Shown in pieces: positions 2,488 through 52,765 of a stretch of DNA of 64,000 nucleotides. The stretch spans positions 7,191,001 to 7,255,000 of the forward strand of contig OZ004584.1 of assembly GCA_963924555.1 (NCBI GenBank). The letters run 5' to 3'. This stretch comes from Crambe crambe. Lineage: Eukaryota; Porifera; Demospongiae; Poecilosclerida; Crambeidae. Each line of letters starts with the position of its first letter. The stretch's first letter is position 1. The notes beneath the pieces were generated by a model. It saw only the letters and a list, made by a program, of their open reading frames with translations, ran no database searches and was not told where the DNA came from. The translations under genes and the position numbers were made by a program.

Positions 2488-3069
2488 ATCCGTTGCGGGA
2501 CACATTATTTTAACGATCACTATTCAGGGACTGTCCCGGAGCTTCCGGGACAGGTGGAGGCTATGCAGCTGGTCAATGTGACTTATCCCGATCTCAACTC
2601 TTTAATTGTTACAACATCACCAAAGACATTAAAAGTTATCTCTTATGACAACTCCAACGGAACAACAGATGAAGAATTTGTTTTTTCAGAGTCTGGGTCA
2701 GTGACGACATCATCATCATCATGGTCTGTGACTGCTGGTATGGAAGCTGGTGTGGAGACAGACGTTACTGCAGGCATCCCTGGGATAGTATCAGCTAGCG
2801 TAAAGGTGTCGGTAAAAGAGAGTATTTCTGGTACTTACAAACGCTCTACCACCAAAACAACTGAACAATCCTTCTCCTTTCCATTCAAAGTTCCCGCTGG
2901 TCAACGGCTGAAAGCCACTGCAATGATTAATGAGGGAAATATCAACACCAGATACACAGGCACGATGGTGTACACTCTTGATACTGGTGAAAAATTCAGC
3001 TATGACGTATCAGGGATATATACTGGCATCTCTGCATCTGAAGTTGTCATGTCAGTGGAGAGATTTTAA
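2488..3069 (+). CDS. Aerolysin/ETX-MTX2-like beta-pore domain protein
   Basis: The open frame runs from just after a stop at 2485 to TAA at 3067-3069; the first ATG is at 2563, giving about 168 aa. The sequence has the look of the aerolysin fold family: long alternating Ser/Thr strands (VTTSSSSWSVTAG, then GVETDVTAG), a Gly/Ser amphipathic segment typical of the insertion hairpin, a central KTTEQSFSFPFKVPAG strand with the turn VPAGQ, and a C-terminal pair of strands with GTMVYTLDTG. Family members oligomerise and form beta-barrel pores in membranes; this copy lacks any recognisable receptor-binding domain and I see no clear signal peptide, so an upstream exon may be missing or the gene may be a domain-only form. 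Single-exon, with no transposon gene beside it; the sequence upstream is the hairpin-ended repeat. Function beyond family membership is not shown. Bacterial origin cannot be judged from here. Confidence 0.6.
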   Translation: MRCGTHYFNDHYSGTVPELPGQVEAMQLVNVTYPDLNSLIVTTSPKTLKVISYDNSNGTTDEEFVFSESGSVTTSSSSWSVTAGMEAGVETDVTAGIPGIVSASVKVSVKESISGTYKRSTTKTTEQSFSFPFKVPAGQRLKATAMINEGNINTRYTGTMVYTLDTGEKFSYDVSGIYTGISASEVVMSVERF

Positions 3070-3301: not shown

Positions 3302-3838
3302 TATGGGAGTGACAGCATTGAATTTAAATATCCAGTCTTGTGATCCATTTCCTGCAGTACAAAGTCATAAATCAAGTTAGCTAACTATAATATATAATAT
3401 TATACACAGTGCATCATTGGGGCAGGACATACTTGCATTTTAGGGGGTCTCGATAGTTATGTTCTGCATCAGTGGATTTAGGCACTCGATTAACAAGTGT
3501 GTTCCACTTCTGAGGACAAGCCCAATCCCAATCCCTCTTATTCAACACAATCTCACCATGACCATTATGAATCTTTGGTCAAGGCCTTAGTGCTTTCCTC
3601 CTCTCTTCCCCTAATGGAACCACATTTGAGTAAAATGTTGCATCAGGCCCAACTATTTCAACTCTTGGAGTTAAAGGAGGAATTTCAGCATAAACTGGCT
3701 ATTGAACATGAAAGAAATTGTAGCTGTGTAGGCATTAGTCTATCATCATTGCTACTTTACCAACATCTTTAGTAATGGCATATGCACTGTTTTCCTGAAC
3801 ATGTATTTCTGGGTGATTTTGTCTATCTTGATAGTTTG
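3302..3838. repeat. Diverged ~0.5-kb direct duplication, copy 1
   Basis: Matches 4260-4783 almost throughout (for example ATATCCAGTCTTGTGATCCA, GGCAGGACATACTTG, CCCAATCCCAATCCCTCTTA). Both copies carry, on the minus strand, remains of the receptor tail described separately. The ~960-bp offset suggests a segmental tandem duplication, with a partial hairpin element between the copies. Confidence 0.8.
3490..3800 (-). pseudogene. Decayed receptor cytoplasmic tail, copy 1
   Basis: On the minus strand, 3797-3757 reads NSAYAITKDVG and 3694-3590 reads PVYAEIPPLTPRVEIVG then FYSNVVPLGEE. These correspond one to one with two consecutive tail exons of the Ig/FN3/Death receptor at 10.75-12.92 kb (NSAYAVIKDDE, then HPYEDIGEITLSTPTEI and FMIPLEEN). 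The exon junction is out of phase here, a stop follows the second block (LRP then TGA), and neither a transmembrane exon nor a Death domain was found. I therefore read it as a fragment of a third paralogue. A further possible exon (KWNTLVNRVPKS, 3518 down to about 3440) is not recognised. Confidence 0.55.
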
Positions 3839-4012
3839 CTTAAGTTGGTGTGGCTATTGAAATTAGGAGGCCTTGGAGTGAATTAGGACTAGTAATATTG
3901 CTGTGATTCTTGAGTTTGGTGATGGGTACAGGTAAGGGGTTAATTTTGACTCATTTGTTGCTGAAGGGCGAGTGAAGTAGGGATTCAAGTTGGGTGATTG
4001 ATAGGAATAGTT

Positions 4013-4150
4013 ATTATATAAGTGAAAAAAGCATTTCGTGAAATGAAAAAAGATGTAGGGATGACCACTGCTCAAAAAAGTAAGGAAACAAGAAGGATGG
4101 AATCTTTGTTCTGTATATCCAGCCAACAATCCCTACATATACGTACATTA
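4013..4150. mobile_element. Half of a foldback element (37-42 kb family)
   Basis: AAGTGAAAAAAGCATTTCGT, GATGTAGGGATGACCACTGC and AACAATCCCTACATATACGT match the left arm of the ~300-bp hairpins in the 37.1-41.2 kb array. The right arm is absent. Confidence 0.75.
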
Positions 4151-4235
4151 CTGCACTATAATCTGAAGCTATGATTAAGTTTTCATATCTAAAGTATCAA
4201 CTCTTGTAGATTCTTATCAAGTGGTGAAATAGGGA

Positions 4236-4266
4236 CTGACTCATAATACCCACACCTACCCTATGG
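4236..4266. mobile_element. Solo end of a pogo-like element
   Basis: The complement reads TA, GGGTAGGTGTGGGTATTATG, AGTCA. The intact pogo element at 31.9-34.7 kb ends in TA, AGGTAGATGTGGGTATAATG, AGTCA. Only one end is present. Confidence 0.5.
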
Positions 4267-4783
4267 GAGTGATAGCATGAATTTGAATATCCAGTCTTGT
4301 GATCCATTTCCTGCAGTACAAAATCATAAATCAAGTTAAACATAATGGCTATAATACACAGTGCATCATTGGGGCAGGACATACTTGTATTTTTTTTTTT
4401 TTTTGCATTTCAGGGGCTAGCTAGCTATATATGTTCTGCATCAATGGATTTAGACACTTAACTAACAAGTGTGTTCCACCTCTGAGGACAAGCCCCAATC
4501 CCAATCCCTCTTATTCAGCACAATCTCACCATGACCGTTATGAATCCTTGATCAAGGCCTTAGTACTTCCTCCTCTCTTCCCCCAATGGAACCATCAGGC
4601 CCAACTATTTCAACTCTCAGAGTTAAAGGAGGAATCTCAGCATAAACAGGCTATTGAAACATGAAAGAGTACAATTAATTGTAGCTATGTAGGTATTAGT
4701 CTATCATCATCTCTACTTTACCAACATCTTTAGTAATGGCATGTGTACTGTTTCCCTGAACTTGTGATTTTGTCTATCTTGAG
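4260..4783. repeat. Diverged ~0.5-kb direct duplication, copy 2
   Basis: Second copy of 3302-3838, with a poly-T insertion near 4391-4404 and several small deletions. It also carries the receptor-tail remnant on the minus strand. Confidence 0.8.
4470..4770 (-). pseudogene. Decayed receptor cytoplasmic tail, copy 2
   Basis: Minus-strand equivalent of the remnant in copy 1, with more damage: the first motif Tyr is His (NSTHAITKDVG), a 15-bp gap removes part of the second block, and further stops occur. No intact reading frame. It adds support for at least three related receptor tails in this 16-kb stretch. Confidence 0.5.
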
Positions 4784-10750: not shown

Positions 10751-12924
10751 TTAGTTGCATGAAAGATATTTTCTTGATAAATAATTAGCCACTTCGTATT
10801 CTTCCATGTTTTTCAATGCATCAGTGATATCAGTCAAATTATGAGAGTTAATGGTGAAAAATAATTCAACTGTGGCTTCCAAGCACACTTCATTAGTATA
10901 ATCTTTGGAGAATTTAGGAATATTATCTGCAACAATTCCTAATTTAGTGGCAAACTCCCTCCACTTGTGAGCAATTGGTGAAAGATCATTCAAAAGGTTA
11001 ACAACAGAAATTCTTGCACTTTTCTGATCCATTTCTGTAATAATTAATAGCTAGTTACCCCACTATAACTTCAAGCAGCATAGCATTACAGCCAACCTGG
11101 TTTCAGTTGAATAAGTGATGTTGTGTTCTCCTCCAATGGAATCATGAATACATCATTGGGTGTGGTTATTTCAGTTGGTGTTGAAAGAGTGATCTCCCCA
11201 ATGTCCTCATAGGGATGATCAGGCTAGAAGTACAGAGAGTATTTAGCTAGCTAGCAGGCTGCATCTCTCTAGTTTGTAGCTACCTCATCATCTTTGATGA
11301 CAGCATATGCACTGTTCTGATGTGTATTTATCTCAGTAGCTGATGGTGCAGGTAGATCATGGTGTCTGGCTGGAAATTCAGTAAACCTCTGTTGTAGGAG
11401 TAGCTATTAGCAACAACATTAACAATAATAAAAACTGCATAGATTCAACCCATTAGCTACCTTTCCTTTCCTCTTGTAATGGAACCAAAGGCAGAAACAT
11501 AATGATGCACTTGATAGCAGCAGAATAACAACTGTGATGCTCAATACTGCAACATTCATTATTAAGATAATACTTAGTAGCTCCAACTACATGTATGTTA
11601 CCTATCATTGTTGTAATTATAGCATCTGTTACAGTATAAGAAGGAAAGCAATCATGTTAAAAAAAATTTTTTATAGTTATAGCTATAGCTATAGTGACTA
11701 ACTTGTTTGTGAGATCACCATATTATTATGAGTAGATCTGTAACTGTTATCAGTTGGGGAATATGTCACAATAAGTCTATTGGATACAGTTCCATCATCA
11801 GTTTCCATATAAATAATGTAATTGTTTACAGATTCATCAAAACATCTGCTACAATTATGGATACTTTCTCCATTCAAACTGATGAAATATTGCTGATTCA
11901 ACTCTGGAGTTACTTGTACTGGGCAGCTGCAGTTTGTGTTATCATAGTAATCAAAGTGGAGAGTTAGCTCTTGGAAGCACACAGATATCACCTGTATAAT
12001 AATTAAAATCAATCATTTACAGTAGACAAGCACCAATGTTAATACCAGTGATACATTCAGTTCAGAATTAATCCAACTTGCTCCATACAGTCGTATAATG
12101 CCTACATATATATAAAATAATTCAGTTTAATTATAATTAGCTAGCTAACTATTTCTATTACCATCATAAAATTCTACATTCCTCGGATCACTAGGAGCCC
12201 CTCGACCCACTACATTCACTGCTGTGACTATGAACTGATAGTGAAGCATCAGTCCAGAGTTGTTGGTAGGTATTGTGTAGTGAGGAGTCACAATGGAACA
12301 TTGTCCAAGGTGGTGAAGTGGAGTCCTCTCTCCCTCAGATATATTGTACACCTCCACACAGAATGTCATGTTTGGGTCAGTGTTAGTGATGTCCAGGGAG
12401 AAGGGAGGCTGCCAAGTCAGAGTGATGGAGGAACAGTTAGTGGTGATATTCACTTCTCTCACTTCATCAAGTATCCCTGCATGCAGTATAAATTGGATCA
12501 GCTAACACATGCATGGATCTCTGAGAGCTATACAGCTAGTTAGCTTTCCTTGAATGTGGAGTGTAATTAAGTCACCATAAATGGTACCAGAGCTTAAATT
12601 TCCTATATCACGTGCCATACACTGAACTGTAATATTTTCATTCTCTTCTGTACAGTTTATCTGAAATTCTTTGAATGATGTTTGCTCTCCAGTTATTATT
12701 GGTGAGGCAGTGATAGTCCATAGAATTGAAGGTAGAATTAGAGATGACGTATTCAAGTTGCAATGAAATTCAGCAGTTTGATTCAAACCACACACCACTA
12801 CTGATCCTTCATTGAATAGAATAATTAATGTAACGACTTTATTACTAGCTATACCTAGCTAGTTACCTTTTATTAGATTTGCACCATGCAGCAGCGAAAT
12901 GGTTATTAAATATCTTCCAGCCAT
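10751..12924 (-). CDS. Ig-FN3-TM-Death receptor A with ITAM-like tail
   Basis: Ten exons on the minus strand read in phase: 12924-12867, 12806-12549, 12476-12162, 12101-12046, 11991-11703, 11625-11602, 11546-11461, 11388-11284, 11223-11097, 11034-10751; 1602 nt, 533 aa. Order of parts: short hydrophobic N-terminus; Ig domain (~21-105, Cys in EFHCNLN and VQCMA); FN3 (~106-210, LTWQPP and YQFIVTAVNVVGRG); a Cys-rich module I cannot name (~211-325, NCSCPV, CSRCF); one transmembrane helix (~327-354) followed by HYKRKGK; tail; Death domain (~455-530, W-R-E-F-A-T-K-L-G-I and the terminal ALKNMEEYEVANYL). The tail has Y390-AVI and Y402-EDI with eight residues between, the spacing of an immunoreceptor activation motif. 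Ectodomain has many N-glycosylation sequons. All joins are GT-AG except the Ig/FN3 join, which is unresolved. Signalling roles are inference from the motifs. Confidence 0.8.
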
Positions 12925-13275
12925 AACTCCTCAGAGTATGCCAATTCAATTAAGGCCACTGTTAATTGTATTGCTGTTTCTGCTCCACAGGTACTTTCCC
13001 AGTTAGCGCGGGCGGGCGGTTGTCAATTGCCATTATGTCATTATTTTATTATTCAGCCATCGTTAAAAAAACCACAAAAATGTCTATAAATATATATGAT
13101 TACTAAGAACAGTGGCCTAAAGATCCTGCGGAAAGGCGGATATACATAGCAGCTATACATGATTTCTGGTTAACTTCCGCTGGATTCGAAAGCTTAATAG
13201 TAGCTACTCGGCTTCGAGGATTTCGTTATAGCATAGCTATAGCTAGCTATTTTGTTAAGCGATTTGCGGAGAGTT
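12925..13275. promoter_or_regulatory. Shared divergent promoter of receptors A and B
   Basis: The 351 bases between the two start codons are all that separates the head-to-head genes. The stretch holds a GC-rich box (GCGCGGGCGGGCGG, about 13007-13020) in otherwise AT-rich DNA and an AT-rich segment (ATAAATATATATGA) near 13086. No TATA box in a standard position is evident. Co-regulation is inference from the arrangement. Confidence 0.5.
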
Positions 13276-16200
13276 ATGGCTGGAAGACATCTAATAGCTA
13301 TTGTTATACTGCTGTATGGTATAGATTTAGTAAAAGGTGTATAGTTAGCCAACTAGTAATAACCTAACTAAGCATTATGTATTCTATTCAATGAAGGATC
13401 AGTAGTGGTGTGTGGTTTGAATCAAACTGCTGAATTTCATTGCAACTTGAATACGTCATCTCTAATTCTACCTTCAATTCTATGGACTGTCACTGCCTCA
13501 CCAATAATAACTGGAGAGCAAACATCATTCAAAGAATTTCAGATAAACTGTACAGAAGAGAATGAAAATATTACAGTTCAGTGTATGGCACGTGATATAG
13601 GAAATTTAAGCTCTGGTACCATTTATGGTGACTTAATTACACTCCACATTCAAGGAAAGTTAACTAGCTATATAGCTCTCAGAGATCCATGCATGTATTA
13701 GCTGATCCAATTTATACTGCATGCAGGGATACTTGATAAAGTGAGAGAAGTGAATATCACCACTAACTGTTCCTCCATCACTCTGACTTGGCAGCCTCCC
13801 TTCTCCCTGGACATCCCTAATATTGACCCAGATATGACATTCTGTGTGGAGGTGTACAATATATCTGAGGGAGAGAGGACTCCACTTCACCACCTTGGAC
13901 GATGCTGCATTGTGACTCCTCACTACACAATACCTACCAACAACTCTGGACTGATGCTTCACTATCAGTTCATAGTCACAGCAGTGAATGTAGTAGGTCG
14001 AGGGGCTTCTAGTGATCCAAGGAGTGTAGAATTTTATGATGGTAATAGAAAATAAAATCATTAACATTACAATTAAACCAAACAAATTTTAGGCATCATA
14101 CAATTGTATGGAGCGAGTTGGATTAATTCTGAACTGGAGCTAAATATATCACTGGTATTAATAATGGTGTTTATATAATTGTAACTATACACTATTGAAC
14201 TATTATGCAGCTGATATCTGTGTGCTTCCAAGAGCTAACTCTCCACTTTGATTACTATGATAGCACAAACTGCAGCTGCCCAGTACAAATAACCCCTGAG
14301 TTGAATCAGCTCATTTTGAATGGCAAGAGTATCCATAACTGTAGCAGATGTCTTGATGCATCTGTAAACAATTACACTATTTATATGAAAACTGATGGTG
14401 GAACTGTATCCAATAGTCTTATTGTGATGTATTCAATAGATAACATCATGACGACACAAACACATATGACAAGTAAGGCTGTGCAGTATCATAAGTATAC
14501 ATGTATAGCTTTATCAGCTATTTCTATCCTCATAGGTATGGCTTCTCCCATAATAATAATAGTCACTGCAGCACTTGCAGGTGGAACAGGTGAATGAAAC
14601 TGAGTACAGGGATGGTGGCTCAGTTTTCAAAGGGGGGAGGGGGCAGGTATAGTTGGAGCCAGCTCTTCCCTCTCTGGGTGCTCTTTGTGCGTATCCTTAT
14701 TCGTAATTATATATCAGCATGGACTCTTCTTGATAATTATACAACACGTTTATTCAGTTTTTTTGGTTGTAGTTGTGACTGAATAAAAGTAGCAAGTAGC
14801 TAGCTAGTCATAATTTTGATTTCCTTCTTATAGGACTTATTCTGCTGCTATCTGCATCCAGCTACTATTTCCATCATAGAAAGGGGAAAAAATTGGTATA
14901 GTATTTAGCTGTAGCTACTGTCCAAAAATGATTTATCATTATCTTGAGCTAGCCCTCTGTGGCCATGACTCTTGTATTGTACTATAGCTATTAGTTAACT
15001 TCCCATTATATCATTAGCTACATGCAGAGAAATGTGATGTCATCGTTGATATATTATTTGGTTAAAAATAGGTAATCAGTGCTAACTTGTACACAGAAGT
15101 CAATATGGTGGAAGTAGTGAGTTCAGAGCTATAACAGAAGTATAATGTTTGATGATGCACATGTAGAATAATATTATACACAGTGATTCTGAAACTCATA
15201 ACACAAACTTGAATCAACCAACATATTGGCCAAATCATCCTGACACAAATCCAACAGCAGAAAACCATTACACTGAAGTAAATGAATGGGGTAGCTACAC
15301 ATGAAGATATAAACTTCTTTTTTTTTTTAGCACCTCTCACGAGAACATTCTGATTCTAACTCACTTGTGATTGACTCAACATATTCTTTAGTAAAACCTG
15401 ATGACCCTCCAAGTAATAAAAATTTGAACGATGTCCAAGAAATCAGAGTTAGAATAAATAAATTGTATGTGTGTCTTACATTAATTTTATTAATACTCCA
15501 GGTCATTTATCCTTCAGAAGAGCCGGTTAAATCAGCAGCAATACATAATCCAGAGAATTCTCTAGCTGCAAAAAGTCTAGAAAATAAAACAATTCAAGAC
15601 CAAAAAGTAAGTTTAAAGACGTAACCCTGCTTATAGCTACCACTTTGTAACTATAATTATGGCATAATAAAAATAAAGGCAACTCAACATGGATCACATG
15701 AAATTCTTGCCACAAGCTCTGCTGCTTCAAGTAAAGAAAATAATGTTGCTCTTCGTCACACTACAGCTCACATCAAAAATGGAGTAATAATAATAAGCAA
15801 ATTGCTTATGGCTACCTTATAGCTATTATATAAATTATATAGGTTATTTATTCCCAAGTTGAGGTTGCAAAATCAACAGTAGATGTGATAAAGATACATG
15901 ATGTCATATATTCTGATATAATCGCAAAACCAGCAAAAACAGAAATAAAAACAGCAGGTATCATTATAAAAATTATTGTAGTAATTCATCAATGAACAAA
16001 TTTCTATTTTAATAGAAGTAAAGGTTCATTCAACACCTCTAACATCTGATAATGTGTACCATGACTTACATTCCATTGCTGGAAAGTGGAGTGAGTTTGC
16101 ACTGAGAATAGGAATTGATGAGGATCTTGAAGATGAGATATTCACTAACAATGAAACCAATGAAGCATGTTTGCAGGAGACCTTGGAATACTTCTTCAAG

Positions 16201-16305
16201 AAAAGAGCTCCTTTCAAAGAACTTACTGATGCTCTATGTCACATTGAAGAGTATGAGTTGGCAAATATTTTATCTAAGAAATATACAGCCACCCAAGCAA
16301 AATAA
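13276..16305 (+). CDS. Ig-FN3-TM-Death receptor B with ITIM-like tail
   Basis: Twelve exons in consistent phase: 13276-13336, 13397-13654, 13727-14041, 14093-14154, 14211-14472, 14536-14589, 14834-14895, 15331-15447, 15502-15606, 15679-15783, 15843-15957, 16016-16305; 1806 nt, 601 aa. The signal peptide (LIAIVILLYGI), Ig and FN3 exons are almost the same as in receptor A, including exon lengths of 258 and 315. The transmembrane helix (~322-350, PIIIIVTAALAGG) and tail differ. The longer tail has Y376 (STYSLV), Y400 (VIYPSEE), Y470 (VIYSQV) and Y490 (VIYSDI); the first, third and fourth fit the [S/I/V/L]xYxx[I/V/L] inhibitory-motif pattern. The C-terminal Death domain (~520-598) has KWSEFALRIGI and ALCHIEEYELANIL. 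The acceptors before exons 10 and 12 and the donor of exon 8 are weak. Divergent with A across a 351-bp promoter. Confidence 0.8.
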
Positions 16306-31945: not shown

Positions 31946-34743
31946 AGGTAGATGTGGGTATAATGAGTCACCTAAGTTCAGCTATCAATTTCTCACGATA
32001 GCATCATAGTAAAAAGGTGGAAATCATGGTACTATATAACAAAGACATGAAGATTCTGAAAATCAAGTTATTTTCACAAACATTTGTTCACAGGTCTCTA
32101 AAAATGAAATTAAACCACACCAGCTAAAAAATGGCTACTTTTGGGTACGATGGTATTATGGGTCACCATGTTTGTCAATGAAAACGGGAAGTAATCATGT
32201 GACTGAATATTGATAAGCCCGCTTACCAACTAATTAACCACTCATTAACCACAAATTGACCACAAAAATTTATCTTCATTATGCAACTGTACAAGTCATA
32301 CTGTGTTCCAATGACACTGTGAATGTAACTACACACAGTTAGAACAGATAAAAGTTGAGTCAGCAATGTTTTCATTGACATCAGCACAGGTCATATCCCA
32401 CCACAATGCGCAGTTGTCACACTGCACCCACTGTTCTTGATCTTGTGCACTGCCGTATACCAGTCCACACCCTGGGCACTCACCTTCACTCTCTTCCCCA
32501 CTGTCTCCAGATTCAATATTCAAGTTCGAGAAAATCTCTTGGAGATCTGGTATAAGATCACTGGTCTTGATTTCTTGCCAACTTGCTCTGGTCTGTCTCT
32601 TTGGTTGCTTTTGCTTCGATTGATCTTTCTTCTTTCGTATCTCTTCCTTTTTTTCCTCCCGCTCTTGTTTCTTCCACTCTCTCTCTTCTTGCTTCTCCTT
32701 CTTCTTCTTTTCTCTTTCTTCCTTCTTTTTCTCTTTCTCTAACCTTCGTCTCTCCTTTTCCTTCTCCTTATCTTTTTTCTCCTCCTTTTGCCGTTTCAAA
32801 TCTTCAAGTACTTCTAGGTCAGTGATGCAGTTAGCTTTTGCATTCACTGCTGGTTTTCTCATCTTCTTTTTTGCAGCTACTGGCTTTGGCAAAGCTAAAA
32901 TTTCACTAAGAGAACTGTTAGTGCTTTCATCACAATTGGGAGAGGACACAGTAGATAATGGTGGGCTTGAACCAGTTGGGGAAGGAAGGTTGTTATCATG
33001 GATCCACTGCAGGTAATCTTCGGTGTAGATATCATACCCTTCTTCATACTTCTTCCTATACTCCAAATCACGATCACTAAGATCTGATCTCCCCACAGAA
33101 GAGGTCCTGGTGACAGATGAAGCATCTGGTGAGGTGTCCGGCCTGTTAAAAGATGAGGCATCTGATGAAGTGTCAGGCTTATTGCCCGGTGATGAAGTAG
33201 GAGAGGATGACGAATGAAATAGGGTAGACGGTGCTAATTGCCTGTCCGTAACTACTCCTGGGTCGAGGGGATATATTCCACATTTCTTGAAGCCAGACAT
33301 GATGTTCACAGGTGTTAGAGCCTGTGGCCATGCAATCCCAACAAGACTAGCAATCTGCTCTGTGGTAATCACTCGATTAGGATGTGCAGCTATTCGCTTC
33401 TTGCATGCTTTGTAGTAGAAGGATTTGAAAGATTTGAACACTCCAACATCCAGTGGTTGTAGTATGTGTGTCGTGTGAGCTGGGATGCAAAGCATGTGAA
33501 TATCATTACTCCTAGCAAACTCAATTGCCTCTATGGACAAGTGTGAGGAATGGCCATCAAGAACAAGAAGTACAGGCCTCGAAGGAGGTATGGACCGAGC
33601 AAAAAAATGGAGCCATACAAGAAACAACTCTGCATTCACCCACCCAGAGTCACTACAATGAAACACAGTTCCAGCAATAGCTCCTTCTTTTAAATTGTCT
33701 GTGACTCTCTGTCTCGGGTAAATCAAGAAAGGGGAAAGAACGAACCCGGATGCAGAAACACATGTGAGTATTGTGTGAGTTTTCCCTTTTTCACCGGATG
33801 TTACAGCCCAAACATTCTGGCGTCCAATCTCTGTCACCACTTTCCCACCTTTGTGGATGATTGTCACACCTGTTTCATCCATGTTGAAAATATTCATGGG
33901 CTTATTCAAGATGTTCAACTTTGCACACACAGCTCCCAATTTTCCAAAAAAATCAGAAACAATTTCACTATTGGCACTGGATGCTCGTGCACGTGAAAGG
34001 GATTGGGTAGAGCGCAAAGTGAGTCGTGGATGTCTTGATCTGAACCCATCAAACCATGCTCGACCAGCAGCGCCATCCGTAAATGGATGCTCCCTTCCAC
34101 TAGCTTCCACAATTTTAAAAGCTACCACCATGACATCAGTTCGTGATAAGCCAAAGCCCATATCAGCCATCTTCACACAATACGAAGCTAGTTCAGTTTC
34201 TTCATGCTCAGTTAAAACTGTAGGCGGCCCACATCTGCACTCTAAGTCAACTTTCTCCACTACTCGTCTTCTTAGTGTTTCATATGGCAGATTGTATAGC
34301 CTAGATGCCTCACGCACACTCATTCCATCTTTCACATCCTGCAGAGCAGCAGCCATACTTTCTTTAGACCACTGCTTGCGAGAGATCTGAAAATGTAGTA
34401 CAAAATTAATGTGTAGCTAGCTACTCTAATTAAAGAGCAACAAATAGGCAATAGGCTCTGTGTCTCATTAAAATTGCTACCTACCTTATGTTGAACAGCG
34501 GTACTGGCCATTGAGATAACCTCCTGCTCTAGATTCCTGCTACAGTCTACCAGAACAGCTGGATCTTTGATAGGTCAAAGGTCACATGAAATAAAGGGTC
34601 CAAAGTGCACTATCTAAGCTGTGGGCGTGGTCAAAATCTTCCAGTCAACTCTAAGTAAGGTCGTTAATAGCTAGTAAGATTTTGAAGGAATTTTATTATA
34701 GTGACTCATAATACCCCCTGACTCATAATACGGACATCTACCT
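31946..34743 (-). mobile_element. pogo-type transposon, 2798 bp, apparently intact
   Basis: TA on both sides. The ends are AGGTAGATGTGGGTATAATG / complement of AGGTAGATGTCCGTATTATG, followed by AGTCA; the phrase GACTCATAATAC is repeated just inside the right end, as expected for transposase-binding sites. Encodes one full-length transposase on the minus strand. A solo end of a relative lies at 4236-4266. Confidence 0.85.
32329..34511 (-). CDS. pogo-type transposase with C-terminal PHD finger
   Basis: Two exons: 34511-34485 and 34386-32329, 694 aa. Parts in order: psq-type helix-turn-helix (~20-60, SVREASRLYNLPYETLRRRV), CENP-B-type DNA-binding domain (~70-150, ending RHPRLTLRSTQSLSRAR), DDE_1 catalytic core with D in NMDETG, D in LDGHSSH and D in QPLDVGVFKSFKS, then a Ser-rich segment, a 60-residue Lys/Glu coiled region (KEKEKERRRLEKEKKKEERE) and a terminal PHD-like zinc finger (CPGCGLVYG, WVQCDNCALWWDMTCA, FICSNC). 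No stop or frameshift is visible, so the protein could be active. A PHD finger suggests chromatin-guided integration, which is inference. The N-terminal exon of nine codons rests on a GTAGG donor and TTTTCAG acceptor. Confidence 0.9.
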
Positions 34744-42579: not shown

Positions 42580-42799
42580 CATAGATACTATAAACTACGT
42601 GTGTAGCGTGCTGAAATGGCTCAGTGCCAGAATGGCTGATTTAACCCCTAGACAGCGGAAATGCGTATTTCTAAATAACGCACACCTATATATAAACATG
42701 CGCGCGCTTATTGACTATAGCTTCATATTGAGCCTTTCTGGCACAGACATTATTAGATAGCTATAGCCATTTTGGCACACACAGTTAGCTAGCATTCAA

Positions 42800-45700
42800 T
42801 TATTATTATAAGACTCTATCATAGTATGAGCCATACTGGCATGCTGCAGTTATTATTATAGACTCTATAGTGAGCCATTCTGGAATGCAGTTATTATTAT
42901 TGACTCTATAGAGTGAGCCATTCTGGCATGCAGTTATTATTATAGACTCTATATAGTGAACCATTCTGGCATGCAGTTATTATTATAGACTCTATATAGC
43001 AAGCCATTCTGGCATGCAGTTATTAATATAGACTCTATATAGTGAGCCATTCTGGCATGCAGTTATTATTATCGACCCTATAATAGTGAGCCATTCTGGC
43101 ACGCAGTTATTATCATAGACTCAATATAGAGTGAGCCATTCTGGCACGCAGTTAGCTATTAATATAGACTCTATAGAGCGAGCCATTCTGGCATGCAAGT
43201 ATTATTATCGACTCTATACAGTGAGCCATTCTGGCATGCAGTTATTAATATAGACTCTATATAGTGAGCCATTCTGGCATGCAGTTATTATCATAGACTC
43301 TATAGAGTGAGCCATTCTGGCATGCAGTTATTATTTTCAACTCTATAGAGTGAGCTATTCTGGCACGCAGTTATTATTTTCAACTCTATAGAGTGAGCTA
43401 TTCTGGCACGCAGTTATTATTATCGACTCTATATAGAGAGCCATTCTGGCACGCAGTTATTATTATCGGCTCTATATAGTGAGCCATTCTGGCATGCAGT
43501 TATTAATATAGACTCTATATAGTGAGCCATTCTGGCATGCAGTTATTATCATAGACTCTATAGAGTGAGCCATTCTGGCATGCAGTTATTATTTTCAACT
43601 CTATAGAGTGAGCTATTCTGGCACGCAGTTATTATTATCGACTCTATATAGAGAGCCATTCTGGCACGCAGTTATTATTATCGGCTCTATATAGTGAGCC
43701 ATTCTGGCATGCAGTTATTAATATAGACTCTATATAGTGAGCCATTCTGGCATGCAGTTATTATCATAGACTCTATAGAGTGAGCCATTCTGGCATGCAG
43801 TTATTATTTTCAACTCTATAGAGTGAGCTATTCTGGCACGCAGTTATTATTTTCAACTCTATAGAGTGAGCTATTCTGGCACGCAGTTATTATTATCGAC
43901 TCTATATAGAGAGCCATTCTGGCACGCAGTTATTATTATCGGCTCTATATAGTGAGCCATTCTGGCATGCAGTTATTAATATAGACTCTATATAGTGAGC
44001 CATTCTGGCATGCAGTTATTATCATAAACTCTATAGAGTGAGCCATTCTGGCATGCAGTTATTATTTTCAACTCTATAGAGTGAGCCATTCTGGCATGCA
44101 GTTATTAATATAGACTCTATATACTGAGCCATTCTGGCATGCAGTTATTATCATAGACTCTATAGAGTGAGCCATTTGGGCATGCAGTTATTAATATAGA
44201 CTCTATAGAGTTAGCCATTCTGGCATGCAGTTATAAACTCTATATAGAAAGCCATTCTGGCATGCAGTTATTAATATAGACTCTGTATAGTGAGGCATTC
44301 TCGCACGCAGTTATTATTATAGACTCTATAGAGTGAGCCATTCTGGCATGCAGTTATTATTATAGACTCTATAGAGTGAGCCATTCTGGCATGCAGTTAT
44401 TATCATTGACTCTATAGAGTGAGCCATTCTGGCATGCAGTTATTATCATAGACTCTATAGAGTGAGCCATTCTGGCATGCAGTTATTATTTTCAACTCTA
44501 TAGAATGAGCTATTCTGGCACGCAGTTATTATTATCGACTCTATAGAGTGAGCCATTTGGGCATTCAGTTATTATTATAGACTCTATAGAGTGAGCCATT
44601 CTGGCATGCAGTTACTAATATAGACTCTACAGCTATAGCGAGCCATTCTGGCATGCAGTTATTATCATAGACTCTATAGAGTGAGCCATTCTGGCATGCA
44701 GTTATTATTATAGACTCTATAGAGTGAGCCATTCTGGCATGCAGTTATTAATATAGACTCTATAGAGTGAGCCATTCTGGCATGCAGTTATTATTATAGA
44801 CTCTATAGAGTGAGCCATTCTGGCATGCAGTTATTAATATAGACTCTATAGAGTGAGCCATTCTGGCATGCAGTTATTAATATAGACTCTATAGAGTGAG
44901 CCATTCTGACATGCAGTTATTATCATAGACTCTATAGAGTGAGCCATTCTGGCATGCAGTTATTATTTTCAACTCTATAGAGTGAGCTATTCTGGCATGC
45001 AGTTATTATTATCGACTCTATAGAGTGAGCCATTGGGCATGGAGTTATTAATATAGACTCTATAGAGTTAGCCATTCTGGCACGCAGTTATAGACTCTAT
45101 ATAGAGAGCCATTCTGGCATGCAGTTACTAATATAGACTCTACAGCTATAGCGAGCCATTCTGGCATGCAGTTATTATCATAGACTCTATAGAGTGAGCC
45201 ATTCTGGCATGCAGTTATTATTTTCAACTCTATAGAGTGAGCTATTCTGGCACGCAGTTATTATTATTGACTCTATAGAGTGAGCCATTTGGGCATGCAG
45301 TTATTATTATCGACTCTATAGAGTGAGCCATTGGGCATGGAGTTATTAATATAGACTCTATAGAGTTAGCCATTCTGGCACGCAGTTATAGACTCTATAT
45401 AGAGAGCCATTCTGGCATGCAGTTACTAATATAGACTCTACAGCTATAGCGAGCCATTCTGGCATGCAGTTATTATCATAGACTCTATAGAGTGAGCCAT
45501 TCTGGCATGCAGTTATTATTTTCAACTCTATAGAGTGAGCTATTCTGGCACGCAGTTATTATTATTGACTCTATAGAGTGAGCCATTTGGGCATGCAGTT
45601 ATTATTATAGACTCTATAGAGTGAGCCATCCTGGCATGTAGTTACTAATATAGACTCTACAGCTATAGCGAGCCATTCTGGCATGCAGTTATTATCATAG

Positions 45701-46150
45701 ACTCTATAGAGTGAGCCATTCTGGCATGCAGTTATTATTTTCAACTCTATAGAGAGAGCCATTCTGGCATACAGTTATTATTATCGACTCTATAGAGTGA
45801 GCCATTTGGGCATGGAGTTATTAATATAGACTCTATAACAGTGAGCCATTCTGGCACGCAGTTATAGACTCTATATAGAGAGCCATTCTGGTGTGCAGTT
45901 ATTAATATAGACTCTGTATAGTGAGGCATTCTCGCACGCAGTTATTATTATAGACTCTATAGCGAGCCATTCTGGCATGCAGTTATTAATATAGACTATA
46001 TTGAGAGCCATTCTGGCATGCAGTTATTATCATAGACTCTATAGAATGAGCCATTCTGGCACGGAGTTATTATCATAGACTCTATATAGTGAGCCATTCT
46101 GGCATGCAGTTATTATTAAATATAGACTCGGCATGCTAGCCGTTCTGGCA
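42800..46150 (+). repeat. Satellite array, left arm, ~43-bp monomer
   Basis: About 75-80 monomers of the form GACTCTATAGAGTGAGCCAT, TCTGGCATGCAGTTATTATTATA, with lengths of about 34-46. The monomer contains a palindrome, ACTCTATAGAGT. Higher-order blocks are visible (e.g. 43250-43470 recurs at 43490-43700 and 43720-43960). The phrase GAGCCATTCTGGCA echoes TGGCTCAGTGCCAGAATGGC in the terminal repeat. Confidence 0.9.
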
Positions 46151-47338
46151 TGCAGTTATAGTGGTATATTCTTGTATAGTGATAAGTCTTTCTGTGAGCC
46201 ATTCGAATCCTCCATTGTACTCAGTAATCTGTCAGTAATAGAAGTTAGTCTGCATGCATCAGGTTATTTTGGGACTGTCTAGCTGAAAGCTATATCTACA
46301 ATCTTGGGTTACAGCAGTTATTAAGCTGTATGCTATAGCTATTAGACAGAAGCTAATAGCTATAATATTATAGTGAGCCATTCTGGTAGGACTATGGAGC
46401 CGTTTTAACAAGCACACTATAGCTGTTCTAGTAGCTATATAATTATTCTGGCTATAGCTATTCTTTCTGTCCGTAATGAGCTACATAGCAATAATTAATT
46501 CAGGCATGGCAATTCTGGCTCAGAGTTATCATTCTGCATCACATTCTGAAATTTTCTGTCACTGCAGTTTAATGGATGATGTTGAAAGTCCTTCTGCACT
46601 GAGATGTAAGTTGCTTAGTATGCAGCTGTAGCAGCTGCAGAGATCATTTTTTAAATTCAAACCTGCACCAACTGCATAGGCGGAGGAACCAGGGGGCCAT
46701 GCCCCCCCCCCCAGATGTTTAGACTTATGGTTTTGCCCCCCCCCCCCCTCCCCCCAGATTTCATTCAACTATTAAGTCATTGTAGGAGACAGTTATACAT
46801 GACTGCATGTGCAAAGTGAACTCAATTGACAAACATGAAAATCATTCACACATGAGGCTAAGTTAGTCACTTAAACTGTTGCAGCAGCTTGATTGCTAAT
46901 TACTATTTTGGAACTTACTGTTACGTATATAACTTATTTGTGTTGACTGAATTTTAAATCACCACTGTTGTTACACATTGTGCAATGGGGGTTTGGGGTT
47001 ATGTTCCTCTGCCTATGAACTGCTCTACATAAGGAGCAAGTGACTGAAGCATGCATGCAGTTGTGATCAACAGAGGATGATACATGCTGGCACATGGTAT
47101 ATAGTCATAGCAAGACTCAAGCCATTCTACATTTACAGTATAATCATATGAGCCATCTCCCATTCATGCTCATGCACTATTTAAACCAACTAGCTATAGA
47201 CTCCACAGACATTGCATTCTTTGTACTAATTTTATACTAAAGTATAGCTATGCTATAGAAGCCTGTAGTAATGGGTACATTTCTAACCATCGATCAATCT
47301 ACAACAATCAATTTTTAATGGAAATAGCTAATACATGG
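46150..47338. other. Interior of the Ginger-related element, no gene
   Basis: Degenerate satellite to about 46.5 kb, then AT-rich sequence with poly-C runs near 46702-46755 (GCCCCCCCCCC type). No coding frame supported. Confidence 0.5.
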
Positions 47339-48415
47339 CTAATTGTGACTTGCACTGTCTTTTAAAAACAATTCTTTCAGAGCATTAGAATCCTCATTAA
47401 TGTAAATAATCTTTGCTTGATCGGTTCTAACTTTAAATCTTTCAGATATTATGGTCACCATGGCCTGCAGTGTGCATAATTGTAATTGTAACATTAAGCT
47501 CCATTTAAATTTGAATACCTCAGGCCATAAGATGTACTGCGCTATATTGAGTCCTGTTATGCCTCTTTTTTTCCTCACATCACATTCCAATGCTCGGAAA
47601 TAAGTGTCAATCTCAAACCCCTGCAAATCATGATAAGCAAGAAATGAACTGTGTAACTAGTTAATTTACAAATAAATGGGTGGAGCCACTATAGCAGGGG
47701 GCACCAATGCTAATTAATTTACTATTAAAGCATGCATCCACCCCACAGACAGAGTCAGAGCCCTCTTTCTTTGCCCATGAGCTATGACTTTACGTAGCTA
47801 GCTACACATTATATATAATTATACCAATTCAATTGTTTCAATTGGCCACTGAGCAGCTATCATCTTTTTCATCTTCTTCGATGCAGTCACTGGAAACAAA
47901 CTTGTTTCAGGCTTCATAATAATAGCCCTCCAATTTTCCTGTAAAATGATTATAATTAGCTACTACGTAGTGTTTGAATCAGCTGGCTATATACCTCTCT
48001 TGACTTTAACACAGCTCTTACAAATTTTCTGGGGAAGATCATGTTTCTTGATATAAGAAGTATTGCTATAGTAATAAGGTGCTAAATCTCCTTAGCAGCA
48101 CTCACTCTTTCCTTTTACAAGAATGACTGTATGATTTCACATAGTCCATCCATATTTTTTCAATGCTCCTCCTGTCGAAAGTGAAAATGTCATCCTTATC
48201 CACTAAACAAATTTTACTCTGTTCGCTAAAGTCCGGAAGTAGATAATCATCATCCAGCCGGTTTCCTTTATCACTCTGTTTGCCATCAGCACAAGTTTCA
48301 TCTACGTACGTACATGAATGAAATTTTTTACATCTGATTCAGTTTCAATAAAAAATACATACTAGCAGTCTCCTTTTCCTGTTCATTTACATCTGGCAGT
48401 GTGAAGGTGTGTTTT
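47339..48415 (-). pseudogene. C-terminal exons of a Ginger-type gene
   Basis: Minus-strand exons, read from high to low coordinates: ~48411-48365 (HTFTLPDVNEQEKE), ~48300-48113 (LLPDFSEQ and KDDIFTFDRRSIEKIWMDY), ~48060-48000, ~47940-47830 (IIMKPETSLFP, KMIAAQWPIETIEL), 47624-47521 (GFEIDTYFRALECDV, AQYILWPE) and 47466-47339 (AMVTIISERFKV, to TAG). They align exon by exon with 28.8-29.8 kb. The upstream part of the gene (integrase, proteases) has been lost where the satellite begins at 48419. Confidence 0.75.
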
Positions 48416-48418
48416 TTC

Positions 48419-50450
48419 ATATAGAGTCTATAATAATAACTGCATGCCAGAATGGCTCACTCGATAGAGTCTATAATAATAACTGCATGCCCGAATGGCT
48501 CACTCTATAGAGTCTATAATGATAACTGCATGCCAGAATGGCTCACTCTATAGAGTCTATAATGATAACTGCATGCCAGAATGGCTCACTCTATAGAGTC
48601 TATAATGATAACTGCGTGCCAGAATGGCTTACTCTATAGAGTCTATATTAATAACTGCATGCCAGAATGGCTCACTCTATAGAGTCTATATTAATAACTG
48701 CATGCCAGAATGGCTCACTATACAGAGTCTATATTAATAACTGCATGCCAGAATGTCTCACTCTATAGAGTCTATATTAATAACTGCATGCCAGAATGTC
48801 TCACTCTATAGAGTCTATATTAATAACTGCGTGCCAGAATGGCTCTCTATATAGAGTCGATAATAATAACTGCGTGCCAGAATGGCTCACTCTATAGAGT
48901 CTATAATAATAACTGCATGCCAGAATGGCTCACTCTATAGAGTCTATATTAATAACTGCATGCCAGAATGGCTCACTATACAGAGTCTATATTAATAACT
49001 GCATGCCAGAATGTCTCACTCTATAGAGTCTATATTAATAACTACATGCCAGAATGTCTCACTCTATAGAGTCTATATTAATAACTGTGTGCCAGAATGG
49101 CTCTCTATATAGAGTCGATAATAATAACTGCGTGCCAGAATGGCTCACTCTATAGAGTCTATAATAATAACTGCATGCCAGAATGGCTCACTCGATAGAG
49201 TCTATAATAATAACTGCATGCCCGAATGGCTCACTCTATAGAGTCTATAATAATAACTGCATGCCAGAATGGCTCACTCTATAGAGTCTATAATGATAAC
49301 TGCATGCCAGAATGGCTCTTTATATAGAGTCTATATTAATAACTGCGTGCCAGAATGGCTCTCTATATAGAGTCGATAATAATAACTGCGTGCCAGAATG
49401 GCTCACTCTATAGAGTCTATAATAATAACTGCATGCCAGAATGGCTCACTCTATAGAGTCTAATATTAATAACTGCATGCCAGAATGGCTCACTCTATAG
49501 AGTCTATAATGATAAATGCATGCCAGAATGGCTCTCTATATAGAGTCTATATTAATAACTGCATGCCAGAATGGCTCACTCTATAGAGTCTATAATGATA
49601 AATGCATGCCAGAATGGCTCTCTATATAGAGTCTATATTAATAACTGCATGCCAGAATGGCTCACTATACAGAGTCTATATTAATAACTGCATGCCAGAA
49701 TGTCTCACTCTATAGAATCTATAATAATAACTGCATGCCAGAATGGCTCACTCTATAGAGTCTATATTAATAACTGCATGCCAGAATGGCTCACTCAATA
49801 GAGTCTATAATAATAACTGCGTGCCAGAATGGCTCACTCTATAGAGTCTATATTAATAACTGCATGCCAGAATGGCTCACTCTATAGAGTCTATAATGAT
49901 AAATGCATGCCAGAATGGCTCTCTATATAGAGTCTATATTAATAACTGCATGCCAGAATGGCTCACTATACAGAGTCTATATTAATAACTGCATGCCAGA
50001 ATGTCTCACTCTATAGAGTCTATAATAATAACTGCATGCCAGAATGGCTCACTCGATAGAATCTATATAATAACTGCGTGCCAGAATGGCTCACTCTATA
50101 GAGTCTATAATAATAAATGCGTGCCCGAATGGCTCACTCTATAGAGTCTATAATAATAAATGCGTGCCAGAATGGCTCACTCTATAGAGTCTATATTAAT
50201 AACTGCATGCCAGAATGGCTCGCTATAGCTGTAGAGTCTATAATGATAACTGCATGCCAGAATGGCTCACTCTATAGAGTCTATAATGATAACTGCATGC
50301 CAGAATGGCTCACTATTATAGAGTCTATAATAATAACTACTGTGCATGGCTCGGCTCACTATATTAAGAGTCTATACTGTGTTCCAGATTATCTCACTAA
50401 TTAACTGCATGTAGAATGGCTCACTATATGATAATGATAACTGTGTGCCA
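48419..50450 (-). repeat. Satellite array, right arm, inverted
   Basis: About 45-48 monomers, the exact complement of the left-arm unit (ATAACTGCATGCCAGAATGG, CTCACTCTATAGAGTC), tandem in the opposite direction, degenerating from 50.4 to 50.9 kb toward the right terminal repeat. Confidence 0.9.
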
Positions 50451-51923
50451 GAATGGATCACTATTATATAGAGTTAATAGTAGCTGCGTCCCCTATATAG
50501 CTAGCTATAGCTCTTTAAAGGCATACCAGAATGGCTCACGTAACTGTAGTTTAATAAATGCATGCCGGAATAGCTAGCTAAAAATCTAGCTACAATAATA
50601 ACTGCATCATAGTGCAAGAATATAATTAGCTATAGCTAATCTACAATAAGATTTGAGTGTGCCAGAATGACTCACTAAAGCCTACAATAATCAATGCATG
50701 GCATACTAGCTGTAGCTATAACTGTGTGCCACATGCAATATAGCTCATCTGTATAGATAAAGTCTATACTGCACAGCGCCAGAATGGCTGACAAGCTACG
50801 GCTTAAGTCTACAATAATATCTAAGCAGTAAATGCATGCCAGAATGGCTTACTGTAGCTAAAGTCCACAATGACATAAACTGCATGCCAGCATAGATTAT
50901 CTATGATGCCTACAATAGCTAAATGCAAGCTCAATAAGCGCGCGCATGTTTATATATAGGTGTGCGTTATTTAGAAATACGCATTTCCGCTGTCTAGGGG
51001 TTAAATCAGCCATTCTGGCACTGAGCCATTTCAGCACGCTACATACGTGTACGGGATTGGAAACCCGCCCCCGCATCCGTATATGGCAATGTAATTCATC
51101 CTTGTCCGAGGTTCCTAGACAAGTTAGTTTCCTGTTTTGGCGAATTTCGCGTATTCTACGCATCCCAAGTTCATCTCCAAAGGAGGAATAGTTCTTGCGG
51201 TGGATTAGCAAGGTAACTATGCAAAGCTTTTACACGAAAGAGTTGCAGAAATAGTTCATAAACTCTAGTTACCGTGAAAATGGCTACTTTTTTGCATGTT
51301 AGTAACATTAACTTGCCTAGAACTCACAGTGAACAGTAATGACAATGAAAATTAGTTGGAGAATAGTTTCTTACATGTACTTAACCATAATATTATTTTA
51401 AGTCATGTAATACTATTACATTCAGCAGAGTGAACAATTTGGATGAAAAAAACCAGTTCAACTGTAGTAACACTTCCTACATTACTATTAGCTAAAATGC
51501 CTACCACTCTACTGAAAGTGGTAGAGCAATGCTTACCATATGTACCTGTAACAAGCTCTTGATCCTAGAGAAAACAGTTAATTTGTTACACTTTTTTGAA
51601 AATGACTATTATTAAAATTGAATTATAGCTATGAGTCAAAGAAATGTATGTATTCCAATGCTAAAAGACAGCAACAGTCTCACAGTGCTAGTGATGATTG
51701 GGTCGAATCTGCAGAGATGTAAAAGAGGCAGAATTAGGGGAGATAATCATTCAGAACATCTTGTTAATGTGCATGGGAGAGTATCTATTCCTGTTATATT
51801 AAAATGGCACCATGTACTATATTCTATGGCACATAGGGTATAATAAAAGCTGTGGATTAAACCTCCCCTATCGATGGCACACCACACATCCATTCCTCCG
51901 ATTCAGATGGTTCCATGTTATCG

Positions 51924-52450: not shown

Positions 52451-52765
52451 ACAACTATCTGCAGATATGAAGTAGCCTCTAACTTAAATATCACCTAGCT
52501 ACCTATTTTTCATTTTTTTCTCTCCCTTTTTTATACAATAATAAGTTGTCAGCTAACTTTTAACTTGTGGAATGCAAGTGGCCATAGGTAACTCAGAGGA
52601 CCACAGAGATCAGTAGCTAGCTTAGCTCGATGCAGCGGCAATCTCCCGCGTTACGTTGCTCGCGGATAAAGAGTTAAGCAAGGCCACGCCCTCGGACACG
52701 GATTCAACTGGTTAATGTGCCGTTTCCAATCCCGTACACGTAGTTTATAGTATCTATGGTCATAG

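What the first reader, a model, noticed from the sequence alone, without database searches (positions are those of the whole stretch)
10751..16305. Head-to-head receptor pair with opposite-looking signalling tails
Two paralogues share nearly the same Ig and FN3 exons (same exon lengths, 258 and 315 nt) and a C-terminal Death domain. Their tails differ: A has one ITAM-like pair, B has three ITIM-like tyrosines. Paired activating and inhibitory receptors with shared ectodomains are a known theme of vertebrate NK/myeloid receptors; finding the plan in what looks like a sponge, combined with a Death domain and a shared promoter, would be new to me. Seen: exon threading, motifs. Inference: signalling polarity and shared ligand.
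Basis: partly seen in the sequence, partly recalled or inferred. Interest (0 to 1): 0.92.

Follow-up and report, generated by a model that had tools for sequence, protein, structure and literature searches.

The report
Paired on/off immune-like receptor genes
Two neighbouring genes of an unnamed, probably sponge-like animal encode cell-surface receptors with almost the same outer part but "go"-looking and "stop"-looking inner tails, both ending in a cell-death domain, and they belong to a large cluster of such genes, which suggests that on/off receptor pairs like those of our natural killer cells may be much older or have been invented more than once.

Summary
Gene A (12924→10751, minus) and gene B (13276→16305, plus) are head to head. 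Their Ig-like exon (258 nt, 1 difference) and FN3 exon (315 nt, 13 differences) are nearly identical, while introns 1, 3 and 4 differ by 24-35%: a conversion tract. A carries YAVI-x8-YEDI (ITAM); B carries STYSLV, VIYSQV and VIYSDI (ITIM type). Both end in a Death domain.

The pair belongs to a large cluster on one chromosome (about 6.58-7.34 Mb). All 14 A-type Death exons found have both ITAM exons and tyrosines beside them. All 15 B-type or B-related Death genes read have a two-tyrosine exon. Tail and Death exons are under purifying selection. Two further A/B pairs carry their own, different, matched Ig-FN3 block, sharply bounded. So activating-looking and inhibitory-looking tails are combined with shared, diversified recognition domains. 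An SHP-like gene and a possible Syk-like gene are present.

Not shown: expression, polarity, ligand, species. "Ig" rests on a C-W-C pattern; Pfam found no Ig in 28 of 28 copies. Head-to-head order is not general. An unexpected GA-AG intron follows the Ig-like exon in 33 of 40 copies.

The parts
10751..12924 (-). Gene A: signal peptide, Ig-like, FN3, membrane-proximal domain, TM, ITAM, Death; 10 exons, 533 aa
   Evidence: exon threading, all junctions in frame
13276..16305 (+). Gene B: same ectodomain plan, TM, tail with several Yxx[ILV] motifs, Death; 14 exons, 657 aa
   Evidence: exon threading
12925..13275 (.). 351-nt gap between the two start codons (possible shared promoter; not tested)
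   Evidence: the consensus scan there covers bacterial-type sites only
12549..12806 (-). A Ig-like exon, 258 nt, followed by a GA (not GT) donor
13397..13654 (+). B Ig-like exon, 258 nt, 1 mismatch to A; GA donor
12162..12476 (-). A FN3 exon, 315 nt
13727..14041 (+). B FN3 exon, 315 nt, 13 mismatches to A
11703..12101 (-). A membrane-proximal cysteine-rich region (exons 12046-12101 and 11703-11991)
14093..14472 (+). B membrane-proximal cysteine-rich region (exons 14093-14154 and 14211-14472)
11461..11625 (-). A transmembrane exons (11602-11625, 11461-11546)
   Evidence: hydrophobic stretch
14536..14895 (+). B transmembrane exons (14536-14589, 14834-14895)
   Evidence: hydrophobic stretch
11284..11388 (-). 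A ITAM exon 1, ...NSAYAVIKDDE
11097..11223 (-). A ITAM exon 2, PDHPYEDI...
15072..15107 (+). B tail exon with NLYTEV
15331..15468 (+). B tail exon with STYSLV
15843..15957 (+). B two-ITIM exon, VIYSQV...VIYSDI
10751..11034 (-). A Death-domain exon
16016..16305 (+). B Death-domain exon
3612..4650 (-). Remnants of a third, Death-less tail type (C2/C3 exons)
   Evidence: C6:7194612-7195650

Best explanation
A and B are a pair of activating and inhibitory receptors from a large, diversifying receptor cluster. The Ig-like/FN3 ectodomain is the recognition part. It differs strongly between Ig classes but is kept nearly identical inside a pair by gene conversion, so both partners should see the same ligand (inferred). 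On ligand binding a Src-type kinase would phosphorylate the tails (inferred). A's ITAM would then recruit a tandem-SH2 kinase of Syk type and promote signalling. B's paired ITIMs, 20 residues apart, would recruit the tandem-SH2 phosphatase of SHP type and restrain it. The shared C-terminal Death domain would give both access to the same Death-fold complex, so the balance of A and B would set whether that complex is launched. Shown: anatomy, conservation, pairing, the conversion-like tract, and exon matches with an SHP-like layout. Inferred: polarity, ligand and outcome.
For: Conversion-like tract in the window pair: Ig 0.4% differences against 24-35% in introns 1, 3, 4; a 280-column tract with at most one mismatch is reached by 0 of 5,000 shuffles. 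Two more A/B pairs carry another Ig class yet are 96% (1,123 columns) and 98% (767 columns) identical in one block that starts 81 and 135 nt before the Ig exon and ends after the membrane-proximal exon or after FN3. 3 of 3 complete pairs match in Ig class; drawing from the six A genes with an unbroken Ig would give this in 2 of 120 orders (two broken copies of a fifth class left out). ITAM: 14 of 14 A-type Death exons have both ITAM exons beside them with both tyrosines. Two-tyrosine exon: 15 of 15 B/D-type Death genes read, linker residues diverging; one broken D-type remnant (6659 kb) without it was not counted. dN/dS 0.18-0.54 on ITAM, ITIM and Death exons, 0.36-0.92 within five Ig classes. 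Pfam Death 17 of 17 and fn3 17 of 17; the Death model aligns to Death-fold chains. SHP-like: the genome's best PTP match sits beside two SH2 matches, C18:6539084-6540942. Syk-like candidate: C14:6544512-6551018. A homologue from a metagenome contig has VVYSEI before the Death domain.
Confidence: 0.62

Rival explanations
1. The tyrosine motifs are ordinary YxxPhi sorting/endocytosis or general SH2-docking sites. Both genes are Death-domain recognition receptors with the same polarity, differing only in trafficking or adaptor choice.
For: YAVI, YEDI, YTEV and YSDI all also fit YxxPhi (motif recalled, not from a call); the other B-type tails read show several further Yxx[ILV] sites; the shared Death domain gives a common output.
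Against: Two YxxI/V motifs 7-9 residues apart (8 in 16 of 18) are kept in all 18 ITAM copies. In the B exon the second motif keeps V or I at Y-2 in 15 of 15 and the tyrosines stay 20-22 residues apart while the linker diverges. Sorting signals need neither.
Confidence: 0.2
2. The family is an allorecognition system: the Ig-like ectodomains discriminate self from other individuals, and A/B tails decide rejection or fusion. This is a version of the best explanation with a stated ligand, so the two confidences overlap.
For: Large cluster, divergent Ig classes, conversion-like tracts and ITAM/ITIM tails, as reported for Hydractinia Alr and Botryllus FcoR (PMC12065747, passages and section 12).
Against: No population polymorphism or grafting data; expansion and conversion fit pathogen recognition as well.
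Confidence: 0.3
3. A and B are recent, weakly constrained duplicates. The tails differ by drift or exon shuffling and the opposite look is chance.
For: A single ITAM or three ITIM-type hexamers arise in about 1% of tail shuffles; broken copies are frequent in the cluster.
Against: dN/dS of 0.18-0.54 on tail and Death exons; motifs kept at 14 of 14 A-type and 15 of 15 B/D-type Death exons read; three pairs with the same plan.
Confidence: 0.06

Closest known systems
SIGLEC11/SIGLEC16 and CEACAM1/CEACAM3-type paired receptors of mammals
   Same: Genes with near-identical ectodomains kept alike by gene conversion and opposite tails. SIGLEC11/16 are head to head about 9 kb apart (PMC5701461, passages); CEACAM1/3 have ITIM/ITSM versus ITAM-like tails (PMC5112662, start of abstract in the search listing).
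   Different: No Death domain (recalled); Siglec-16 signals through an ITAM-bearing adaptor (PMC5701461, passages), whereas A carries its own ITAM; the ectodomain here is one Ig-like domain plus FN3 and a cysteine-rich domain.
Hydractinia Alr family (allorecognition complex)
   Same: Clustered family of Ig-superfamily single-pass receptors, at least 41 loci (PMC11067881, passages), with ITAM/ITIM motifs on candidate genes (PMC12065747, passages).
   Different: No Death domain is mentioned in the passages read; direct sequence comparison was not made.
Botryllus fester co-receptors (FcoR)
   Same: Tails with ITIM or hemITAM motifs in a receptor cluster (PMC12065747, passages and section 12).
   Different: Ectodomain is V-type Ig, sushi and two C2-type Ig (same source); single hemITAM rather than a full ITAM; no Death domain mentioned in the passages read.
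Sponge genes joining Ig domains to Death-fold or TIR domains
   Same: A Dysidea avara gene with Ig domains and a CARD, induced by microbial molecules, and Ig-TIR receptors (PMC6208332, passages).
   Different: No ITAM/ITIM is mentioned there (the term ITAM occurs 0 times); CARD or TIR instead of Death.
Death receptors (TNFRSF, UNC5, p75NTR)
   Same: Single-pass receptor with C-terminal Death domain (recalled); p75NTR Death domains appear weakly in the profile search (E 0.48).
   Different: No TNFR, TSP1 or ZU5 match in full-length B; ITAM/ITIM motifs precede the Death domain.

Membership tests
Activating/inhibitory paired receptors (works like) | Near-identical ectodomains within a pair, more divergent elsewhere | tested here: met
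   Three pairs
Activating/inhibitory paired receptors (works like) | Opposite tyrosine motifs (ITAM versus ITIM) | tested here: met
   Motif level only
Activating/inhibitory paired receptors (works like) | Opposite signalling outcome, same cells, shared ligand | not testable with these tools
   No expression or binding data
Immunoglobulin superfamily | Match to an Ig profile or Ig fold | tested here: inconclusive
   0 of 28 Pfam Ig matches; AlphaFold pLDDT 37; invariant C16-W30-C63; best PDB profile hit an antibody light chain, E 0.029, with C and W aligned but each stretch alone insignificant
Fibronectin type III proteins | FN3 profile match | tested here: met
   17 of 17, best E 2.3e-6; window B exon 22.4 bits, below the 25-bit cut-off
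Death-domain proteins | Death-domain profile and Death fold | tested here: met
TNF-receptor superfamily death receptors | TNFR cysteine-rich repeats | tested here: not met
   Pfam scan of full B finds none
Hydractinia Alr | Sequence homology to Alr1/Alr2 | not tested
   No Alr sequence was compared
Botryllus FcoR | V-type Ig, sushi, two C2 Ig domains | tested here: not met
   Ectodomain is Ig-like, FN3 and one cysteine-rich domain; no sushi match in full B or in the domain alignments
ITAM/ITIM pathway organisms | Tandem-SH2 phosphatase of SHP type in the genome | tested here: met
   Exon-level matches only: C18:6539084-6540942, two SH2 plus the best PTP match
ITAM/ITIM pathway organisms | Tandem-SH2 kinase of Syk type in the genome | tested here: inconclusive
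   C14:6544512 SH2, 6548751 partial SH2, 6550176-6551018 kinase, same strand; only the best kinase candidates were scored

The most novel reading that the evidence does not exclude
A non-bilaterian animal (probably a sponge) has a single-chain version of the natural-killer on/off logic. Matched receptor pairs join a diversified recognition domain to an ITAM or a double ITIM and to a Death domain on the same tail, so one cluster holds a ready-made 'kill or spare' switch for self/non-self decisions, with ectodomains homogenised by gene conversion.
Probability: 0.35. Interest if true: 0.93.

Novelty: new variant of a known kind. Interest (0 to 1): 0.82.

Why it matters
How sponges and other early animals recognise kin or microbes at the molecular level is an open question. 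[quoted passage not shown] A cluster with matched ITAM and ITIM partners would extend that to another lineage and give places in a genome to test. I found no paper in the held library that joins ITAM or ITIM to a Death domain on one tail (searches); the library lacks most subscription papers. Such a tail would couple phosphotyrosine control directly to Death-fold signalling.

Tried and rejected
The search for homologous proteins with full-length A scored nothing at E 0.001. AlphaFold on the Ig exon failed, so no fold search was made with it. A variant U1 RNA that would read GA donors was looked for: three U1 genes found, all with the ordinary 5' end ACTTACCTG, so no support. I considered that the Ig exon might end at an upstream in-frame GT; one copy (FDDLH, C6:6625936) seems to lack the GGT codon that would supply it (inferred from the protein), and the residues after it end in IQG in 28 of 28 exons aligned. 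The membrane-proximal domain had no consistent Pfam match (23 exons). The organism could not be named: a search with a window transposase gave hits from ENA, JGI and other sources without organism names. Families absent from the VIA list are not excluded.

Full report
What is there. Exon threading gives gene A on the minus strand, 12924 to 10751, ten exons, 533 aa, and gene B on the plus strand, 13276 to 16305, fourteen exons, 657 aa. Their start codons are separated by 351 nt. Each protein has a signal-peptide-like start, an Ig-like exon, an FN3 exon, a cysteine-rich membrane-proximal region, a transmembrane-like segment, a tyrosine-bearing tail and a C-terminal Death domain. Signal peptide and transmembrane segment are read by eye.

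Shared ectodomain. Aligned region by region, A and B differ at 1 of 258 sites in the Ig-like exon, 3 of 72 in the intron after it and 13 of 315 in the FN3 exon. They differ at 14 of 58, 18 of 51 and 17 of 54 sites in introns 1, 3 and 4. The longest tract with at most one mismatch is 280 columns; 0 of 5,000 shuffles of the mismatches reach it. This is what gene conversion between the two arms would leave.

Tails. A's tail holds one ITAM, YAVIKDDEPDHPYEDI (154 of 20,000 shuffles contain one). B's tail holds STYSLV, VIYSQV and VIYSDI, each fitting [ILVS]xYxx[ILV] (268 of 20,000 shuffles have three), plus NLYTEV. The motif definitions are recalled. The frame-keeping donor GTAAAT in B ends exon 9 at YTE, so a further HYTEV is not made in this model.

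The family. The window lies at C6:7191001-7255000 of a 143-Mb genome. The ectodomain query has 179 matches; the listed ones are on C6 except two on C10, and those on C6 lie mostly between 6.58 and 7.34 Mb (the list is cut and only 131 candidates were scored). Death searches gave 57 matches with B's exon (55 on C6, 2 on C14) and 59 with A's. Sorted by hand by identity, the 55 on C6 are 14 A-type (83-100% to A), 9 A-related (51-56%), 22 B-type (73% or more to B) and 10 of a B-related class, D (48-50%). One of the 22 (4694 kb) lies outside the cluster.

Tail conservation. Both ITAM exons occur 18 times; 14 of these stand beside the 14 A-type Death exons, and four, with a shortened second exon, lack one. 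All 18 keep both tyrosines: YAVI in 16, YHAV and YAVV in one each; YEDI in 16, YEEV in two; the spacing is 8 residues in 16, 9 and 7 in one each. At least one of the 14 Death exons has a stop (6753 kb), and the 6685-kb copy has no Ig or FN3 of its own. Fifteen of 15 B-type or D-type Death genes that could be read have the two-tyrosine exon: VIYSQV (4), VKYAQL (8) or xxYAQL (3), then [VI][VI]YSD[IV], 20-22 residues apart with diverged linkers. One broken D-type remnant at 6659 kb, without the exon, was left out of that count; in one counted gene (6726 kb) exon and Death lie 5.6 kb apart. A third tail type has no Death domain and reads YTVI, YAVT, YAEI. dN/dS estimates (own script, pairwise, pooled over sampled copies; 3 to 10 per tail or Death set, 34 FN3, 4 to 6 per Ig class): ITAM exons 0.46 and 0.23, A Death 0.20, B-type Death 0.18-0.25, ITIM exons 0.29-0.54, FN3 0.48, Ig within five classes 0.36-0.92.

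Pairs. Thirty-eight intact Ig-like exons, several of them identical copies, have a median identity of 0.40; I sort the ones on long stretches into seven classes by best match. A tails occur with five classes. In one of these (r17) both copies are broken, and in another (r21) the two copies hold an extra membrane-proximal exon fragment with a stop. The B1 tail, four genes, occurs with three classes, each also found with an A tail; class r21 carries both ITAM genes and ITIM genes of the D type. The three complete A/B1 pairs match in class: window (0.99), 6770/6776 kb (0.95), 7122/7136 kb (0.90). In the second pair one block of 1,123 columns, 96% identical, starts 81 nt before the Ig exon and ends at the membrane-proximal exon; nothing else aligns. 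In the third a block of 767 columns, 98% identical, starts 135 nt before the Ig exon and ends with FN3; the membrane-proximal exon differs by 27% and a further 79-column stretch is 73% alike. The fourth B1 gene (6710 kb) lies beside an A gene but no Ig or FN3 was found for it and its Death exon is broken. Against strict pairing: the 7136-kb Ig is closer to a Death-less gene (0.94), so homogenisation acts across a class.

Arrangement. The window pair is head to head; 6705/6710 and 6770/6776 kb are tail-to-tail; the 7121 and 7135 kb genes are on the same strand about 12 kb apart. A shared promoter is therefore not a rule of the family.

Machinery. The genome's best PTP match lies beside two SH2 matches on the same strand (C18:6539084-6540942), the layout of an SHP phosphatase. 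An SH2, a partial SH2 and a kinase lie within 6.5 kb on C14, a possible Syk. Both are exon-level matches, not gene models.

Other species. A profile search of the protein collection with the 17 Death exons gave 17 matches. One is the window's own and several are near-copies of this family. Four come from short contigs (1.4-4.4 kb) at 46-57% identity to B over part of it. One of these (P0136) has ...KVVYSEI... upstream of the Death domain, aligning with B's DVIYSDI; its first tyrosine is YALT and not an ITIM, and the tails alone give no significant match. This suggests, weakly, that the ITIM-Death tail is not confined to this genome. The species of neither is known.

A splicing surprise. The Ig-like exon ends at CAAG|GAAAG in 33 of 40 copies listed, some of them identical. 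Of the other seven, six (the first-Ig class) have GT and one broken copy reads GAAGC. GA-AG introns flanked by AG upstream and A downstream are reported for Eurytemora and Oikopleura (PMC7072748, passages). Ordinary gene finders would probably split these genes. Three U1 RNA genes have a normal 5' end.

How it most likely works, and what is known. The closest working parallel is the mammalian paired receptor. SIGLEC11/16 are head to head, with gene conversion keeping the binding domain alike (PMC5701461, passages). Among invertebrates, Alr and FcoR candidates carry ITAM/ITIM or ITIM/hemITAM motifs (PMC12065747, passages and one section). In a sponge, a gene with Ig domains and a CARD is listed (PMC6208332, passages). 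I found no paper in the library joining these motifs to a Death domain, nor one describing them on sponge receptors (searches; passages read). The Alr source paper is not held. So it works like a paired-receptor system at the level of anatomy; membership in Alr or FcoR is not shown.

Limits. The window, 216 kb in long stretches and 24 short loci were read, of a cluster of about 0.76 Mb; other genes are known by search coordinates only. Polarity, ligand, expression and species are untested.

Noticed in passing
window 12543-12548 (-) and 13655-13660 (+); 33 of 40 Ig-like exons listed: Family-wide GA-AG intron after the Ig-like exon (CAAG|GAAAG); the three U1 RNA genes found have the ordinary 5' end.
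   Followed up: partly
G000:C5:1417826-1656255: Array of many SH2 matches, many in close pairs roughly 400-750 nt apart, possibly a tandem-SH2 gene family.
   Followed up: no
G000:C16:4976850-6050423: Array of tyrosine-kinase-like open frames, 26 PF07714 matches listed.
   Followed up: no
window 2488-3069 (+): Open frame with a weak ETX/MTX2 (aerolysin-type pore-forming) Pfam match, E 0.0057, below cut-off.
   Followed up: no
window 32329-34416 (-) and 52651-53310 (-): A DDE_1/psq transposase of 695 aa and a DDE_Tnp_1_7 (piggyBac-like) transposase.
   Followed up: partly
window 42789-50930: Long repeat arrays matching each other in both orientations (42.8-46.2 kb and inverted at 48.4-50.9 kb), match starts often about 43 nt apart.
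   Followed up: no
window 61905-63992: Self-inverted match of 2.1 kb at 97% identity (near-perfect palindrome).
   Followed up: no
window 3612-4650 (-): Remnants of the Death-less (C) tail exons of the same family.
   Followed up: partly
G000:C1:1039173-1039325: A fragment 73% identical to A's Death domain, with stops, outside the C6 cluster.
   Followed up: no
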